Assembly (NCBI RefSeq): GCF_000296695.1
Contig: NZ_BAFK01000004.1
Location: forward strand, 171,280 to 235,279
Direction of reading: 5' to 3'
Origin: Rheinheimera nanhaiensis E407-8
GTDB taxonomy: Bacteria; Pseudomonadota; Gammaproteobacteria; Enterobacterales; Alteromonadaceae
Length of the DNA stretch: 64,000 bases
Shown here piece by piece: positions 264 through 36,369 of the stretch. The notes beneath the pieces were generated by a model. The model saw nothing but the letters and a program-made list of their open reading frames with translations. It ran no database searches and was not told the DNA's origin. Positions within the stretch are counted from its first letter, which is position 1; every line of letters begins with the position of its first letter. The translations under genes were made by a program, and so were the position numbers.

Positions 264-1370
264 GTGACGACTGTGACTGCTTCTCCCTCTCTACCACGCC
301 GCCTGTGGCGCCATTTTTGTTTAATGCTGGGTAATCAGCCTGCACTTAGCCTCTATCTGCAACCTTTACTTCGCGCTGTTTGGCCAGGTTTTATGCCCGG
401 CCAATTTCGTGGCCAACTGGCAGAAAAAAGCTGGCAAACGGCTGATATGGTAAAACTGACCTTACGAGTGTCACGCCGCTGGCCGGGCTTTATACCGGGC
501 CAGCATGTGCTGCTGACGCTTGAGCATAATGGCAAAAACCTCCCCCGCCCCTTTAGCATTTGCTCGCCGCTTAGCCTGTGGCATAGCCAACGCCAGATTG
601 AGCTGTGCTGCAAGGTACAGCATAACGGCGCCGTTACACCGCTGTTGGCCCAGCTGACAGCGGGCAGCAGGGTAAACATCAGCGCTGCTCAGGGTGCCTT
701 TAGCTGGCAGCAACCTGCCAGGCCGGCACTGTTTGTCGCCGCGGGCTCCGGTATTACGCCTATTGCCTCGATGCTACTTAGCCAGCGCCATTGGCTTACG
801 CCCGTCAGCCTTTACTACAGGGTGCGCGGCAAAGAGCAGGCCGCGTTACTGGCACCGCTGCAACAACTGGCCGCGCAACAACCTTTGTTCAGCCTGCAGC
901 TGTCCGACAGCCGGTTTGAACATAGCGACGCCTTTACCCGGCAAGTTTGCACGGAAGGCCAGAATAAGCAGCTGTACCTATGCGGTCCCCAAGCCTTGAT
1001 GCAGCAGTTAAACGCCGCCCTAGTGCAGTCCGGTGTAGCGAAACACAACATTTTTCAGGAGCAATTTGGCCCGGCGCTGCTGGCACAAAGCACTGACAGT
1101 ATCAGCGGGCAATATCAGGTGGCGCTGCAAAGCAGCACCAGCCAGCAGGTATTTAGTGCCCAAGCAAACCAAAGCCTGCTGCAAAGCGCTGAGCAACAGG
1201 GCTTAAACCCGCGTTTTGGTTGTCGTATTGGTGTGTGTTTTCAATGCGTGTGCGACAAAATCAGCGGCCAGGTGCGTGATATCCGTAGCGGTGCCTTAAG
1301 CGGCCATGGCAGCGAGCAAATTCAGTTATGTATCAGCCAGCCGGTCACGGATCTGGTGTTAAAACAATAA
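264..1370 (+). CDS. Ferredoxin/flavodoxin-type NAD(P)H oxidoreductase with C-terminal 2Fe-2S domain (desaturase electron donor)
   Basis: A 368-residue FAD/NAD(P)H/2Fe-2S reductase that should pass electrons from NAD(P)H to the desaturase encoded next. Order: N-terminal helical extension, FAD-binding barrel with RPFSIC (95-100), nucleotide-binding fold with FVAAGSGITP (157-166) and YLCGPQALM (238-246), then a plant-type 2Fe-2S domain with C320-X4-C325-X2-C328 and C356. The arrangement matches oxidoreductase partners of acyl-CoA/acyl-lipid desaturases (the mycobacterial Rv3230c-DesA3 pair is the known example). The start is GTG with a weak ribosome site. The segment WPGFMPGQ (40-47) recurs as WPGFIPGQ (73-80), making the assigned N-terminus slightly uncertain. 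It is likely co-transcribed with the desaturase 11 bases downstream. Confidence 0.85.
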   Translation: MTTVTASPSLPRRLWRHFCLMLGNQPALSLYLQPLLRAVWPGFMPGQFRGQLAEKSWQTADMVKLTLRVSRRWPGFIPGQHVLLTLEHNGKNLPRPFSICSPLSLWHSQRQIELCCKVQHNGAVTPLLAQLTAGSRVNISAAQGAFSWQQPARPALFVAAGSGITPIASMLLSQRHWLTPVSLYYRVRGKEQAALLAPLQQLAAQQPLFSLQLSDSRFEHSDAFTRQVCTEGQNKQLYLCGPQALMQQLNAALVQSGVAKHNIFQEQFGPALLAQSTDSISGQYQVALQSSTSQQVFSAQANQSLLQSAEQQGLNPRFGCRIGVCFQCVCDKISGQVRDIRSGALSGHGSEQIQLCISQPVTDLVLKQ

Positions 1371-1381
1371 CAGGGCAAAAG

Positions 1382-2467
1382 ATGGTATTAAGCAACGAGC
1401 AATATCAGGCGCTGGCACAAGAGCTGGACGGTTTAAAACAGCAGGTGCAGGCACAATTAGGCGAGGCCGACGCCCGTTATATCCGCCGGGTCTTGCTGGT
1501 GCAGCGCATCAGCGCCATTAGCGGTCGTATTTTACTGGTGCTGGGCTTTATCACGCCCTGGCTGTGGGGGCTGGGTGTGCTGCTGTTGGCACTGGGCAAA
1601 ATTCTCGACAATATGGAAATTGGCCACAATGTGCTGCATGGCCAGTACGACTGGATGAACGATCCCCTTTTACACTCACGCCGCTATGAGTGGGATATTG
1701 CCTGCGAAGCCGGCTCCTGGCAGCGCACCCATAATGTCGAGCATCACAGCTATACCAATATCATAGGCTTGGATCGCGACTTTGGTTATGGCTTACTGCG
1801 CCTGAGCAACGATTTTCGCTGGCGGCTGCGTAATTTATGGCAAAGCGGCACTTACCTGCTATTGAGCATGTTGTTTCAGTGGGGCGTGTCGTACCACGAG
1901 CTGGCCGGCCAGCGGGTGTTTTTCGGTAAAAAAAAGGCTAACCGCCAAACGCAGGTGTCTGACAGCGAGCTAAAAAAAGCCTTTTTCGGCAAGGGCGTGC
2001 GGCAACTGGTGAAAGACTATCTGTTTTTCCCCTTAATCGCCGGGCCCATGTGGCTGTGGGTGCTGTGCGGTAATTTACTGGCCAATTTAATCCGCAATGT
2101 GTGGACATCAACGGTGATCTTTTGCGGCCACTTTACCAAACAAGTGTATGCCTTTAAGCCGGAAGACTGTGAAAACGAAAGCCGCGGCCACTGGTATTAC
2201 CGTCAGATGTTGGGCTCGTCTAATTTTACCGGCCCCACCTGGCTGCATATTTTAACCGGCCATTTAAGCTGCCAGATAGAGCACCACCTGTTTCCGGATA
2301 TCCCTGCCCGGCACTACCCGAATATGGCAAAACAGGTGCAGGCGATAGCGGCGAAATACGGCACCCCGTATAACACCGGCAGCTTTTTGCGCCAGTACAG
2401 TACCGTGTTTTGGCGCATTATGCGCTATTCACTACCCGGTGGTAAAAGTGCGGTAAAAGCCTTGTAG
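1382..2467 (+). CDS. Membrane fatty-acid desaturase
   Basis: A 361-residue integral-membrane di-iron desaturase that should introduce a double bond into acyl chains using electrons from the adjacent reductase. The three histidine clusters are all visible: HNVLH (82-86), HNVEHH (117-122) and QIEHH (298-302). Hydrophobic stretches occur around residues 48-72 and 140-250. The reading frame stays open upstream into the reductase gene (to 1328), but ATG 1382, just after the reductase stop and close to an AGGGC purine run, is the better start. The regiospecificity cannot be read from sequence. A FabR/DesT-like palindrome precedes the operon, and a structured repeat follows the stop. Confidence 0.88.
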   Translation: MVLSNEQYQALAQELDGLKQQVQAQLGEADARYIRRVLLVQRISAISGRILLVLGFITPWLWGLGVLLLALGKILDNMEIGHNVLHGQYDWMNDPLLHSRRYEWDIACEAGSWQRTHNVEHHSYTNIIGLDRDFGYGLLRLSNDFRWRLRNLWQSGTYLLLSMLFQWGVSYHELAGQRVFFGKKKANRQTQVSDSELKKAFFGKGVRQLVKDYLFFPLIAGPMWLWVLCGNLLANLIRNVWTSTVIFCGHFTKQVYAFKPEDCENESRGHWYYRQMLGSSNFTGPTWLHILTGHLSCQIEHHLFPDIPARHYPNMAKQVQAIAAKYGTPYNTGSFLRQYSTVFWRIMRYSLPGGKSAVKAL

Positions 2468-2481
2468 AAAAATCATCGTAG

Positions 2482-2582
2482 CGAGAAACGGTTTACCCTA
2501 AGCAGACCGTTGAAAGCATGGATGCTTGAGACGAGCCTACATGGATGTATTTACGGCGTGTCTGTGTGGGTGAACCGTTTCG
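2482..2582 (+). repeat. Structured dispersed element, copy 1 (3' of the desaturase)
   Basis: About 100 bases in the gap between the desaturase and the convergent CBS gene. The terminal arms GAAACGGTTTACCC (2485-2498) and GGGTGAACCGTTTC (2568-2581) pair over 14 positions with one T-G wobble. Inside are CAGAC/GTCTG (2503-2507 / 2560-2564), a small hairpin AAGCATGGATGCTT (2514-2527), and a core at 2532-2569 that is 36/38 identical to copy 2 on the minus strand at 35831-35868. The arms differ in sequence from copy 2 yet still pair. Its function is unknown; a 3'-UTR structure or terminator is possible. Confidence 0.8.
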
Positions 2583-2592
2583 TGCAAATACT

Positions 2593-3024
2593 TCATTTGA
2601 CAGGTGCTGTACGCTTATCAGTTCTGTCCAGTGCGCGGATAATATCGCGCCAGCTTAAAATACCCTGCGGCCGGTTTTGGCTGTCTACCACAGGGATACA
2701 CGACACGCCTTCGTGATTAAATAACTGAATCGCATCCATCACTTTAGCCTCTGGCGGCAAGGTTACCGGCTTGCGTAGCATCACCTGGTGTACCTTTTTA
2801 TTTAAGGTAGCTAAATCACGCGCCGTTTCTGCTGCAGTGCCAATATGTGGGCTTAACGCTTTAAATAAATCCCGGTCAGACAGCACGCCAATTAATATCC
2901 CCTTTTCCACCACCAACACATGATGAAACTTTACATTGTCAAAAATTTGCTTCACCACGGCCAAAGTATCGTCTGGCGAGACACTCACCGGTTTGGCACT
3001 CATTAAACGGGCAACATTCAGCAT
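2593..3024 (-). CDS. Two-CBS-domain protein
   Basis: A 143-residue protein made almost entirely of a CBS pair: first repeat about residues 1-60 (MSAKPVSVSPDDTL, VVEKGILIGVLSDRDL) and second about 75-135 (VMLRKPVTL, CIPVVDSQNRPQGILSWRD). CBS pairs bind adenine nucleotides and often act as regulatory subunits; no effector domain is fused here. It is clearly related to the CBS protein at 39734-40171, sharing the pattern F-x-H-V-x-V, LIGV/LVGI, LSP and GI(L/V)SW(R/K)DI. It lies alone, convergent with the desaturase, so its partner cannot be inferred. Confidence 0.85.
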   Translation of the reverse strand: MLNVARLMSAKPVSVSPDDTLAVVKQIFDNVKFHHVLVVEKGILIGVLSDRDLFKALSPHIGTAAETARDLATLNKKVHQVMLRKPVTLPPEAKVMDAIQLFNHEGVSCIPVVDSQNRPQGILSWRDIIRALDRTDKRTAPVK

Positions 3025-33615: not shown

Positions 33616-35769
33616 ATGAAAAAATCCTTACTTGTACTGGCGTTAGCCAGTAGCTTCGCCCTGGCAGATGAAGGCATGTGGATGCCGCAACAACTGCCAC
33701 AAATTGCCACCGAACTAAAAGCTGCCGGCTTAGCGCTAGACCCGGCCGACTTAACCAAACTCACTGAGTTTCCTGCCGCGGCCATTGTTAGCTTAGGTGG
33801 CTGCTCAGCGTCTTTTGTGTCGCCCAACGGCCTGGTTGCCACTAACCACCACTGTGTGTATGGCAGCATTGCGCATAACTCAACGCCAGAGAACGATTTA
33901 TTAGCCAATGGCTTTTTAGCCAAAACCTTAAGCGAAGAAGTACCCGCTGCGCCGGGCAGCCGTATTTTTGTTACCAAAGCGGTCGATAATGTCAGCGATA
34001 AAGTCATTGACGCTGCCACGGCCAAATTAAGCGGCAAAAAGCGTATTGATGCTATTGAAGCTAACCAAAAAGCCATCGTCGCCGAGTGTGAACAAGACGA
34101 AGGCCACCGCTGCACCGTAGCCGCCTATTACGGCAGCCTGGAGTTTTACTTAATTAAACAGCTGGAAATTAAAGATGTGCGTTTAGTGCACGCGCCAGCA
34201 GAAGGCGTAGGTAAATTTGGCGGTGACACCGACAACTGGATGTGGCCACGCCACACCGGTGATTACAGCTTCTACCGGGCTTATGTGAGCCCAGAGGGCA
34301 AGTCAGCCGATTACAGCACCGACAACGTGCCTTATAAGCCAGACTTTCATTTAACCCTGGCTAAAGATGGCGTGAAAGAAGGTGATTTTGTGATGGCAAT
34401 GGGTTACCCCGGCCGCACGAACCGTCACCGTTTACCCAGTGAAGTCAGCGAAACCTTTGAATGGGCTTACCCGAACACGGTAGCGCACTTTAAAAACACG
34501 CTGGACATTATCGCCAAACAAACCGCCAACGATAAAGACGCTGAGCTAAAATACGCCAGCCGCGTCGCCGGCTTAAATAACTACATGAAAAACCGTCAGG
34601 GCATGCTCGACAGCTTTGCCGACAGCGACTTTTTAAGCCGCAAACAAGCCGAGCATGCTGAGCTGACCAAGTGGGTGAACAGCAGCCGTGCCAACAAAAA
34701 AGCCTATGCCGATGATTTAACAGCCATTGAAAAACTGCTGAAGCAAAGCCAGGAAAAAGATCGCAAAGACTATTTACTGGATAACGCCAAATCCCGTCTG
34801 TTAACCGTTGCAGGCGCCCTGTATCGTTTAGCAGAAGAAAGCACTAAGCCAGATGCAGCGCGTAAAGCCGGCTTCCAAAACCGTGACCTGCCGCGGTACA
34901 AAGCCTTTGTTGCCGGTATGGAGCGCAACTTTGCCGTTAGCGTAGAAAAAGCGCTGGATCTTTATAACTTAAGCCGCTATGCCGCCCAGCCGAAAAAAAT
35001 GCGCGACAGTGAGTTTGATAAGGTAATGGGTATTAAAGATGGCATGTCTGAAGCTGCGCTAAAAGCATTAATCGACGGCTGGTATGCCAACACAGGCTTA
35101 ACCGCACTGGATAAACGCAATGCCCTGCTGGAGATGACGCCAGAGCAAATCGCCGCGCTGGACGACAGCTTTGTTAAAGCCGCCGTTGCACTACATAAGT
35201 GGAACTTAAAACAAGAAGCGGCCGAAGAAGAGCTGGCCGGTAAAATTCAGCAGGCCTATGCCAGCTATATGCGCGCCAAAATCGCCTTTATGCAGTCGAA
35301 AGGTCAGGCCGTTTACCCGGATGCCAACAGCACACTGCGGGTCACTTACGGTAACGTAAAAGGCCGTGGCCACGGCAATGAAGACGGCAACGCCTGGGCG
35401 CCGTTTACTACGCTGCGCGGCATTACCGCTAAAGCCACCGGCGAGGGTGAATTTAACGCACCACAAAGCCAGCTAGACGCCATTAACGCCAAGCAATATG
35501 GCCCTTACAAGGTAGAAAGCTTAAACTCAGTGCCGGTAAACTTTTTGGCTACGCTGGATATTACCGGTGGTAACTCAGGTTCAGCGGTTTTAAACAGCAA
35601 AGCTGAACTGGTTGGCCTGGCGTTTGACGGCACGCTGGACTCTATTATTTCAGACTGGGACTATAATCCGGACAATACCCGCTCGATTCAGGTTGATCAC
35701 CGTTTTATGCTGTGGCAAATGCAGCTGGATGGTGCCGACAATCTGTTAAAAGAAATGGGTGTTAAATAA
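33616..35769 (+). CDS. S46-family dipeptidyl-peptidase (DPP7-like), exported
   Basis: A 717-residue periplasmic serine exopeptidase that should release dipeptides from peptide N-termini. Signal peptide MKKSLLVLALASSFALAD. Triad regions: TNHHC (H78/H79), DNWMWPRHTGDYS (D216) and GNSGSAV (S654). The residue that separates DPP7 from DPP11 in Porphyromonas (Gly versus Arg about 18 after the serine) is Gly here (LAFDG, G672), suggesting hydrophobic rather than acidic P1 preference. The usual S46 length and order are kept. A GCAA-loop terminator follows. Confidence 0.92.
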   Translation: MKKSLLVLALASSFALADEGMWMPQQLPQIATELKAAGLALDPADLTKLTEFPAAAIVSLGGCSASFVSPNGLVATNHHCVYGSIAHNSTPENDLLANGFLAKTLSEEVPAAPGSRIFVTKAVDNVSDKVIDAATAKLSGKKRIDAIEANQKAIVAECEQDEGHRCTVAAYYGSLEFYLIKQLEIKDVRLVHAPAEGVGKFGGDTDNWMWPRHTGDYSFYRAYVSPEGKSADYSTDNVPYKPDFHLTLAKDGVKEGDFVMAMGYPGRTNRHRLPSEVSETFEWAYPNTVAHFKNTLDIIAKQTANDKDAELKYASRVAGLNNYMKNRQGMLDSFADSDFLSRKQAEHAELTKWVNSSRANKKAYADDLTAIEKLLKQSQEKDRKDYLLDNAKSRLLTVAGALYRLAEESTKPDAARKAGFQNRDLPRYKAFVAGMERNFAVSVEKALDLYNLSRYAAQPKKMRDSEFDKVMGIKDGMSEAALKALIDGWYANTGLTALDKRNALLEMTPEQIAALDDSFVKAAVALHKWNLKQEAAEEELAGKIQQAYASYMRAKIAFMQSKGQAVYPDANSTLRVTYGNVKGRGHGNEDGNAWAPFTTLRGITAKATGEGEFNAPQSQLDAINAKQYGPYKVESLNSVPVNFLATLDITGGNSGSAVLNSKAELVGLAFDGTLDSIISDWDYNPDNTRSIQVDHRFMLWQMQLDGADNLLKEMGVK

Positions 35770-35810: not shown

Positions 35811-35918
35811 TTCGAGTCGAACCGACTTGTCCACACAGACACGCCGTAAATACGTCCCTGTAGGCTCGATTCGGCCATCCTGGCCTGCAACGGTCTGTTT
35901 AGAACAAGTCGATTCTCA
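35811..35918 (-). repeat. Structured dispersed element, copy 2 (3' of the CBS gene)
   Basis: The reverse complement matches copy 1 at 2482-2582. The core 35831-35868 differs from copy 1 at only two of 38 positions. The end arms on the minus strand are GAATCGACTTGTTC and GGACAAGTCGGTTC (plus 35902-35915 and 35819-35832). They pair at all 14 positions if two T-G wobbles are allowed, although their sequence is unrelated to the copy-1 arms. The small internal hairpin is GGCCA-TCC-TGGCC (35873-35885). It lies just after the CBS gene stop on the same strand. Confidence 0.8.
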
Positions 35919-35937: not shown

Positions 35938-36369
35938 CTAGTTTGCTTTTTCCAATAACTCTGCCGCCAGCCGGACAAAGTCTGACGAGGTTAAAATGCC
36001 CTTCAGCTTGTTGTTTTCATCTACCACCGGCATACAGCCGTGGCGGTTTTTCACAAAAAAGCCGGCTACCTCTTTTAGTGATTGATCTGGCGTTACCGCA
36101 GCAAAATCGGTTGCCATCATATCGGCTACCAGCTGCTGCTTTTCTTTGCGCTCCAGTGCTGTCGCACCATATTGCGCCATTAAGCCCATCACTTTGGCAA
36201 TCATAATTTTTTGCGTCAGCATACCGACTAGCTCACCATTTTGTTCAATCACCGGTATATGACGCACATTTTTCTGCCGCATTAAATCATGCGCGTCTTT
36301 CAGGCTGGCATCGCGGGTAACACATAAGGGATCGGCGGTCATCAGCTGGGCAACGGTGGTAATGGTCAT
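35938..36369 (-). CDS. Two-CBS-domain protein
   Basis: A 143-residue CBS pair: MTADPLCVTRDASLKDAHDLM with VRHIPVIEQNGELVGMLTQ (about 8-60), then MATDFAAVTPDQSLKEVAGFFV with HGCMPVVDENNKLKGILTSSDFV (about 88-138). CBS pairs sense adenosyl ligands. It is less similar to the other two CBS proteins in the window than they are to each other. Good ribosome site (CAGGAG). It is single, with the structured repeat directly downstream. Confidence 0.85.
   Translation of the reverse strand: MTITTVAQLMTADPLCVTRDASLKDAHDLMRQKNVRHIPVIEQNGELVGMLTQKIMIAKVMGLMAQYGATALERKEKQQLVADMMATDFAAVTPDQSLKEVAGFFVKNRHGCMPVVDENNKLKGILTSSDFVRLAAELLEKAN

What the first reader, a model, noticed from the sequence alone, without database searches (positions are those of the whole stretch)
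2482..2582. Two-copy structured element with compensatory stem changes: probable structured RNA
Seen: the core 2532-2569 is 36/38 identical to the minus strand of 35831-35868, but the terminal arms differ in sequence (GAAACGGTTTACCC/GGGTGAACCGTTTC here, GAATCGACTTGTTC/GGACAAGTCGGTTC in copy 2). Both sets pair at 14/14 positions if G-U is allowed. All three wobbles are T-G on the same element strand; on the other strand they would be C-A mismatches. CAGAC/GTCTG and a small hairpin (AAGCATGGATGCTT versus GGCCA-TCC-TGGCC) are also kept paired. Inference: selection acts on an RNA structure made from one strand. Similar GTATTTACGGCG-bearing repeats are, from memory, scattered in related genomes; I cannot confirm whether this one is described.
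Basis: seen in the sequence. Interest (0 to 1): 0.72.

Follow-up and report, generated by a model that had tools for sequence, protein, structure and literature searches.

The report
Mobile repeat displaying CsrA-type RNA hairpins
This 100-base element is one of 32 copies in its genome of a scattered repeat found across many gammaproteobacteria; one strand is predicted to fold into a branched RNA whose two conserved hairpins likely bind the global regulator CsrA, which would tie a known class of probably mobile repeats to a major regulatory protein.

Summary
In detail: two copies, 36 of 38 core bases shared, both pairs of arms 14 of 14 paired, all three wobbles on one strand. The genome holds 32 copies; all 31 genomes of the genus (likely Rheinheimera) hold 11-64, and 68 of 369 sampled genomes of the class hold it. 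In 59 diverse copies aligned by sequence alone, 37 of 39 predicted pairs show changes on both sides. The fold is a long stem closing a three-way junction with two hairpins. H1 stems vary almost freely, but the loop keeps GGA, mostly as ANGGAN, the loop form that CsrA/RsmE binds, about 23 nt from the second one; 257 of 270 copies have such a pair, 2 of 270 antisense. The genome has csrA and a CsrB-like RNA with the same kind of hairpin. The element has known relatives: it is homologous to the Yersinia YPAL/RU-2 repeat, Rfam Ysr224 is antisense to it, and Rfam TwoAYGGAY has the same architecture. The CsrA reading of this repeat appears new in the papers searched, and is untested. Expression and binding were not testable; outside the genus, orientation to genes shows no sense bias.

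The parts
2485..2581 (+). copy 1 of the element, outer stem to outer stem
   Evidence: R1 112.3 bits
2485..2498 (+). copy 1 P1 5' arm, pairs with 2568-2581
2568..2581 (+). copy 1 P1 3' arm
2502..2507 (+). copy 1 P2 5' strand GCAGAC, pairs with 2560-2565
2560..2565 (+). copy 1 P2 3' strand GTCTGT
2514..2527 (+). copy 1 hairpin H1, loop ATGGAT at 2518-2523 (GGA 2520-2522)
   Evidence: in the minimum-energy fold of this copy H1 loses to another pairing
2535..2557 (+). copy 1 hairpin H2: GCC-TAC-ATGGAT-GTA-TTTAC-GGC (GGA 2543-2545)
   Evidence: also not in this copy's minimum-energy fold
35819..35915 (-). copy 2 of the element, outer stem to outer stem
35902..35915 (-). copy 2 P1 5' arm, pairs with 35819-35832
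35819..35832 (-). copy 2 P1 3' arm
35873..35885 (-). copy 2 hairpin H1 GGCC-AGGAT-GGCC (GGA 35878-35880)
35851..35862 (-). copy 2 hairpin H2 TAC-AGGGAC-GTA (GGA 35855-35857)
   Evidence: by covariation, the minimum-energy fold of this copy pairs the region otherwise
1328..2467 (+). fatty acid desaturase gene; copy 1 arm starts 17 nt after its stop codon, same strand
35938..36369 (-). CBS-domain gene; copy 2 arm starts 22 nt after its stop codon, same strand
2593..3024 (-). CBS-domain gene converging on copy 1
33616..35769 (+). S46 peptidase gene converging on copy 2; a terminator-like hairpin lies between it and the element

Best explanation
The element is a scattered, probably mobile, palindromic repeat of the YPAL kind whose sense strand, when transcribed as part of a gene's 3' tail, is predicted to fold into a three-way junction and likely docks one CsrA dimer on its two GGA-loop hairpins. 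Shown here: copy number, the covarying fold, the invariant GGA of H1 on freely varying stems, the 23-nt spacing, the gene for CsrA and a CsrB-like RNA in the same genome. Inferred: transcription of the sense strand by read-through from the upstream gene, binding by CsrA, and mobility. Likely effect, untested: the long stem protects or defines the 3' end of the host mRNA while the two hairpins bring CsrA to that mRNA, and the dozens of copies together draw on the CsrA pool as a dispersed decoy.
For: Covariation: 37 of 39 pairs with double changes in 59 diverse copies, covariation score 0.764 against 0.203 for shuffles, 0 of 500; 11 of 32 pairs already in the 7 pattern-found own copies. Loops: H1 GGA in 59/59, 58/59 and 58/58 rows while the six adjoining 5' stem columns 36-41 hold 0.2-0.8 bits; GGA in H1 in 230 of 233 parsed copies, although the scan pattern said nothing about H1. 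Paired GGA hairpins 20-27 nt apart in 257 of 270 copies against 2 of 270 antisense, 38 of 1350 shuffles and 8 of 2412 stretches of the window (for 152 of the 270 the scan pattern had fixed GGA of H2). Loop form ANGGAN, closing AC/GU pairs, and a spacing within 10-63 nt with an optimum above 18 match the CsrA/RsmE site as reviewed in PMC7652899 (passages); SELEX consensus RUACARGGAUGU also in PMC4347634 (passages). Longer copies carry extra GGA hairpins. One csrA, equal to chain 1y00_A (carbon storage regulator; E. coli by recall) in 54 of the first 55 residues; CsrB-like RNA with hairpins such as TACC-AGGAT-GGTA. At the copy 2 site, relatives show compensatory changes in P1 and P2 and an exchange of H1 that keeps a GGA loop. 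In own and genus loci tandem copies lie sense to antisense 26 to 9, and 0 of 61 lie inside a long ORF. csrA in 55 of 56 good genomes with the element, 225 of 258 without.
Against: No RNA or binding data. Outside the genus tandem copies are sense 33, antisense 49, so many are not on the coding strand of their neighbours. Conservation seems wider than CsrA needs: GAGCC, UUYAC and GGCG are nearly fixed (largely by construction there, since the scan pattern held these letters for 49 of 59 rows), but many of these columns are nearly fixed in the own-genome copies too, while variants such as GAGCG, GAGCT and CAGCG occur. For both window copies the minimum-energy fold does not show H2 as drawn, and for copy 1 neither hairpin; mean unpaired probability of GGA is 0.81 in H1 and 0.63 in H2 over 27 short own copies. 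One 98%-complete genome (G366) has the element and no csrA hit; over all 369 genomes 63 of 68 against 250 of 301 gives p 0.06, over 314 good ones p 0.015, kinship not corrected. The covariance models favour GGA.
Confidence: 0.5

Rival explanations
1. The folded strand matters as single-stranded DNA: a transposase recognises the hairpins during excision or insertion, as IS200/IS605 and REP-associated enzymes do (recalled), and the GGA loops are part of its recognition site.
For: Presence and absence, and opposite orientations, at the same sites in relatives; conserved stretches beyond the GGA loops in own copies; one Y1 transposase gene in the genome; no sense bias outside the genus.
Against: The single Y1 transposase has no copy of the element within about 1.2-1.5 kb and nothing links it to the element; the loops match the CsrA site in letters, closing pairs and spacing; longer copies add further GGA hairpins.
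Confidence: 0.25
2. Structured RNA for another purpose: the element is an mRNA 3'-end stabiliser or processing site (long stem, RNase III or exonuclease barrier), and the GGA loops serve another protein or a tertiary contact.
For: Model matches start a median 21 nt after the stop codon of a same-strand upstream ORF (27 of 34 own rows, one of the 27 a duplicate); very stable folds; the review PMC2229807 reports that YPAL might influence stability of upstream transcripts (passages).
Against: A plain barrier needs no invariant GGA loops; intrinsic terminators are not clearly replaced (2 of 31 own copies have one downstream; in the window 4 of 20 convergent and 0 of 8 tandem gene ends without the element have one).
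Confidence: 0.2
3. No selection on RNA: arms stay complementary because palindromes are corrected against themselves by template switching during replication (recalled mechanism), and copies simply spread.
For: Arms differ widely between copies yet stay paired.
Against: It would not keep the H1 GGA loop while its stem drifts, nor an excess of G-U over A-C in P1 (246 to 43), nor keep H1 and H2 as separate small hairpins with their own double changes.
Confidence: 0.05

Closest known systems
YPAL / RU-2 (Yersinia palindromic sequence, ~168 bp)
   Same: The Y. pestis RU-2 sequence printed in PMC2759123 Table 1b (passage seen) holds the same parts in the same order: P2, H1 with AAGGAT loop region, GCC-TACATGGATGTA-TTTAC-GGC; a Yersinia proxima copy scores 63.7 bits with model R2. 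Intergenic, many copies. A conserved secondary structure for YPAL was already predicted in PMC2267715 (RNAz score 1.00; table passage).
   Different: Window form is ~100 nt (or ~176 nt with extra hairpins inserted at H1), lies in another genus, and has different outer arms. CsrA is not named in PMC2759123, PMC2229807, PMC5193452 or PMC2267715 (find counts 0).
Rfam RF02770 Ysr224 (Yersinia sRNA 224)
   Same: Antisense to the Yersinia form: Ysr224 at L080 375-481 minus, 94 bits, overlaps the element at L080 351-457 plus.
   Different: Window copy 2 scores 12.9 bits against a cut-off of 70; modelled on the strand without GGA hairpins.
Rfam RF01731 TwoAYGGAY
   Same: Long outer stem closing a junction with two hairpins whose loops read CAUGGAUG; the element strand is the matching strand. 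PMC4333381 predicts CsrA binding for it (passages).
   Different: Scores 21.1 bits (copy 1) and 31.7 bits (L143) against a cut-off of 43; no word of a scattered repeat in the passages seen.
CsrB/RsmZ-type CsrA sponge RNAs
   Same: GGA in loops of short hairpins, several per RNA; the genome's CsrB-like RNA has hairpins of the same kind.
   Different: The CsrB-like RNA has 18 GGA at one locus; the element has 2 hairpins (more in long forms) at many loci, rarely with a terminator after it.
REP / BIME repeats (features recalled)
   Same: Scattered palindromes, often at gene 3' ends; inverted neighbours occur.
   Different: Longer and branched; no link to a RAYT-type gene shown.

Membership tests
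YPAL/RU-2 | homologous core sequence in the same order | tested here: met
   RU-2 sequence printed in PMC2759123; Y. proxima L080 63.7 bits, Sodalis L177 77.8 and Y. similis L168 55.8 bits with R2
YPAL/RU-2 | length about 168 bp (a shorter class about 130) | tested here: not met
   97 nt between outer arm ends in both window copies; model matches of 173-178 nt in five long own copies, by an insertion at H1
YPAL/RU-2 | many intergenic copies | tested here: met
   32 in the genome, 0 of 32 inside a long ORF
YPAL/RU-2 | insertion with target duplications of 3-26 bp, filled and empty sites | tested here: inconclusive
   Site 1 lacks 5' arm and core in L247, L248, L250 but keeps a 3'-arm-like stretch, so it may be a scar; five relatives carry a copy in the other orientation; duplications not measured
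Rfam RF02770 Ysr224 | score at or above gathering 70 bits | tested here: not met
   12.9 bits at copy 2 antisense; nothing in the window at gathering
Rfam RF01731 TwoAYGGAY | score at or above gathering 43 bits | tested here: not met
   21.1 bits; 31.7 on L143
Rfam RF01731 TwoAYGGAY | two AYGGAY hairpins inside one long stem | tested here: met
   copy 1 has ATGGAT twice; printed model structure
CsrA-binding RNA | two or more ANGGAN-loop hairpins spaced for one dimer | tested here: met
   criteria from PMC7652899 (passages)
CsrA-binding RNA | csrA in the same genome | tested here: met
   63 of 68 element-bearing class genomes
CsrA-binding RNA | sense transcript bound by CsrA | not testable with these tools
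   needs RNA-seq, gel shift or CLIP
REP elements mobilised by RAYT | Y1 transposase gene flanked by the repeat | tested here: not met
   one Y1_Tnp in the genome, no copy within about 1.2-1.5 kb

The most novel reading that the evidence does not exclude
A class-wide family of mobile repeats has taken over the CsrA recognition code: each transcribed copy is a ready-made CsrA dimer dock, so genomes with dozens of copies carry a dispersed CsrA sponge and place new genes under CsrA simply by insertion at their 3' ends. The Yersinia YPAL repeats would then be CsrA RNAs.
Probability: 0.3. Interest if true: 0.85.

Novelty: new variant of a known kind. Interest (0 to 1): 0.62.

Why it matters
Small palindromic repeats such as YPAL have been described for years without, in the passages seen, a molecular partner for their inner structure. 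A covariation-supported fold with CsrA-type loops gives a directly testable partner, would explain why the H1 loop never changes while its stem does, and would make insertion of a repeat a way to rewire a global post-transcriptional regulator in many gammaproteobacteria. It also suggests that Rfam Ysr224 models the strand opposite to the one that carries the GGA hairpins.

Tried and rejected
Lone new ncRNA: rejected, since the element is a repeat with 32 own copies and a YPAL/RU-2 homologue. tRNA or tmRNA: none in the window. Known Rfam family at curated threshold: none in the window; miRNA hits at loose threshold look like generic long hairpins. Intrinsic terminator as the function: terminators are rare on either side (the first scan was too strict and missed the one beside copy 2) and not clearly rarer than at other gene ends. 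Plasmid or phage carriage: no match for copy 2 in 72,556 plasmid and 50,697 phage records at blastn sensitivity. E. coli as a source of CsrA data: 5 of 5426 genomes have a weak, partial match to the Yersinia copy, so that line led nowhere. Association with CBS genes, suggested by the two window copies, was not followed beyond. The inner P2 pairs of models R1 and R2 (their G-U cells) are superseded by the three-way junction, so only the P1 counts are used. One search aligned two copies in the wrong orientation and was replaced.

Rows dropped and limits: A5-A8 hold 288 rows, 280 unique sequences, 270 of at least 90 nt; 233 of 270 were parsed for H1. A9 used 57 of 113 eligible copies, thinned by me for near relatives, plus the two window copies: 49 rows from loci found with the scan pattern, 8 found by covariance model only. 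The pattern fixed GAGCC, GGA of H2 and TTNACGGCGT, so the constancy of those columns, and of pairs 63-65/83-85 and 68/75, is partly by construction. In one search, 12 of 19 loci (site 1) and 21 of 30 loci (site 2), own included, gave a spacer. csrA co-occurrence was tallied by comparing the lists by eye. Open reading frames are mechanical.

Full report
Observation. The two copies exist as described: 36 of 38 core bases shared, arms 14 of 14 paired in each, all three wobbles T-G on the element strand. The element strand folds better than shuffles in both copies (z -6.3 and -5.1), the antisense strand less so (z -5.0 and -2.6).

The element is a repeat. A pattern search found 7 copies in the genome, and a covariance model built from these found 32 places, the weakest at E 6.5e-6. 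In the genus, 31 of 31 genomes have 11 to 64 matches. The genus is likely Rheinheimera: contig C77 of G005 has the length and top score of a R. hassiensis contig. In the family 52 of 147 sampled genomes and in the class 68 of 369 have at least one match at E 0.001, with stricter filters.

The fold. In 59 diverse copies aligned by sequence alone (57 of 113 eligible, plus the two in the window) RNAalifold gives 39 pairs, of which 37 have at least one double change. Cells paired: 88.0% against 56.7% in shuffles; covariation score 0.764 against 0.203 (0 of 500 shuffles); sliding the partners by 1 to 3 columns gives 0.11 to 0.21. The structure was derived from the same alignment, which favours it on the share of paired cells. 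The picture is a long stem (P1, P2), with all four Watson-Crick pairs at most positions, closing a three-way junction with hairpin H1 and hairpin H2. H2 has 3 pairs around the loop, a UUYAC bulge and a GCC/GGC base; of these, the constancy of the bulge and base in A9 is partly set by the scan pattern, while the two outer pairs next to the loop (TA/TA and CC/GG forms) were free and covary in 23 and 27 rows.

One strand. In P1 of 270 copies there are 246 G-U and 43 A-C cells; base composition alone, judged from shuffles of P1 and P2 together, would favour G-U about 1.7 to 1. Over all pairs of the sequence-only alignment the ratio is 106 to 45. This favours structure on the element strand, as RNA or as single-stranded DNA.

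The loops. The six 5' columns of the H1 stem next to the loop-closing pair hold 0.2 to 0.8 bits, and one Saccharophagus copy has an A/T stem next to the loop (L089). The loop keeps GGA in 59/59, 58/59 and 58/58 rows, with A two bases before it in 51 of 59. The scan pattern did not include H1; it did include GGA of H2. In 118 copies found by covariance model without that pattern, 113 were parsed with GGA in H2. The model itself favours GGA, but most copies score 50 to 120 bits, far above threshold, so copies without it should mostly have been found. The GGA to GGA distance is 23 nt in 202 of 262 copies tallied. Two GGA hairpins of at least 3 pairs, 20 to 27 nt apart, occur in 257 of 270 copies, in 2 of 270 on the antisense strand, in 38 of 1350 shuffles and in 8 of 2412 half-overlapping 106-nt stretches of the window, both strands. 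Five long own copies have an insertion at H1 that brings further GGA hairpins.

Thermodynamics is less tidy. For copy 1 the minimum-energy fold pairs across the two hairpins, and for copy 2 it keeps H1 but not H2. Over 27 short own copies the mean unpaired probability of GGA is 0.81 in H1 and 0.63 in H2.

Why CsrA. A review (PMC7652899, passages) gives the CsrA consensus as RUACARGGAUGU, mostly a six-base loop closed by AC/GU, the RsmE loop as ANGGAN, and bridging of two sites 10 to 63 nt apart with an optimum above 18. H2 in its TACAGGGATGT form (for example L003) matches that consensus from its second letter on. The genome has one csrA, equal to chain 1y00_A in 54 of the first 55 residues, and a CsrB-like RNA (36 bits, below the 71-bit cut-off) with 18 GGA and hairpins such as TACC-AGGAT-GGTA, the same kind as H1. 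In the class sample, csrA is found in 63 of 68 genomes with the element and 250 of 301 without; in good-quality genomes 55 of 56 and 225 of 258 (Fisher p 0.06 and 0.015; kinship not corrected). The exception among good genomes is G366; the other four are 67-88% complete.

Context. Copy 1 starts 17 nt after the stop codon of a fatty acid desaturase gene, copy 2 22 nt after that of a CBS-domain gene, both on the same strand as the gene. Among 32 own copies 14 are tandem sense, 12 convergent, 5 tandem antisense, none divergent, 1 at an edge; in 29 genus loci 12, 11, 4 and 2 divergent. Elsewhere, of 215, tandem copies are sense 33 and antisense 49, 43 are convergent, 17 divergent, and 51 fall inside a mechanically called long ORF, unverified. 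So a sense position in the 3' tail is common in this genus but not a rule for the family.

Evolution at the two sites. For copy 2, five relatives hold the copy in full and in the same orientation. L278 differs at two P2 pairs on both sides (A-U to G-C, A-U to U-A), L280 at one P1 pair on both sides, L277 has another H1 with a GGA loop, and L280 and L281 have the long form; half-changes also occur, one A-C in L278 and one in L280, and a T-G that reads T-A in L276 and L278. A sixth, L279, has lost part of the element between two direct repeats. Seven relatives have a copy in the other orientation between the same genes, and in seven more no copy is seen by eye. For copy 1, three relatives lack the 5' arm and core but keep a stretch like the 3' arm, which may be a scar or a target; five hold a copy in the opposite orientation with other arms; two hold other repeats; one has no spacer. 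This fits a mobile or at least unstable element, but no clean insertion with duplications was shown.

Known relatives. The Y. pestis RU-2 sequence printed in PMC2759123 (passage) has P2, H1, H2 and the bulge of this element. PMC2229807 (passages) describes YPAL/RU-2 as a small mobile sequence with target duplications; PMC2847712 (passage) counts it in Yersinia genomes; PMC2267715 (passages) lists YPAL with a predicted conserved secondary structure. The original YPAL paper (De Gregorio 2006) was not looked up and was not read. Rfam Ysr224 is antisense to the Yersinia form. TwoAYGGAY has the same architecture and was predicted to bind CsrA by PMC4333381 (passages), but the window copy scores 21.1 of the required 43 bits. 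Searches for a paper joining CsrA with these repeats found none that does so (open-access library only). PMC9788540, found, concerns two CsrA-related sRNAs of Alcanivorax (passages and outline); PMC9029176 holds both words, Ysr224 only in lists (passages).

Verdict. A real, structured, class-wide repeat of a known kind (YPAL), with a new and testable reading: sense transcripts would dock CsrA. The structure is well supported, the strand fairly well, the partner likely, the effect unknown.

Noticed in passing
L305 (G000:C48:163026-163337, minus): CsrB-like RNA with 18 GGA, 36 bits against RF00018 (cut-off 71), probably the genome's own CsrA sponge; a heptamer (CTTGTCA) repeats about 7 times just after it.
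   Followed up: partly
L033, L034, L035, L040 (own genome) and L280, L281: Long 167-178 nt forms with extra GGA hairpins inserted at H1; at the copy 2 site two relatives have the long form where the window has the short one.
   Followed up: partly
L080 375-481 minus: Rfam RF02770 Ysr224 is modelled antisense to the Yersinia form of this element.
   Followed up: partly
2593-3024 and 35938-36369: Both window copies lie next to a small CBS-domain gene of 143 aa, at its 3' end but in opposite orientations to it; may be coincidence.
   Followed up: no
L107, L124, L139, L151, L158, L174, L193: Neighbouring copies in inverted orientation about 26-145 nt apart, as in BIME-like arrangements.
   Followed up: no
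L246, L255: At the copy 1 site two relatives carry other palindromic repeats (GGGGCGCAT...GCGCCC-like units), so this gene end seems prone to repeats.
   Followed up: no
columns 37-38 and 55-56 of A9: Some H1 stems have G-A and A-G opposite each other, which looks like tandem G-A pairs; PMC4333381 mentions tandem GAs in TwoAYGGAY.
   Followed up: no
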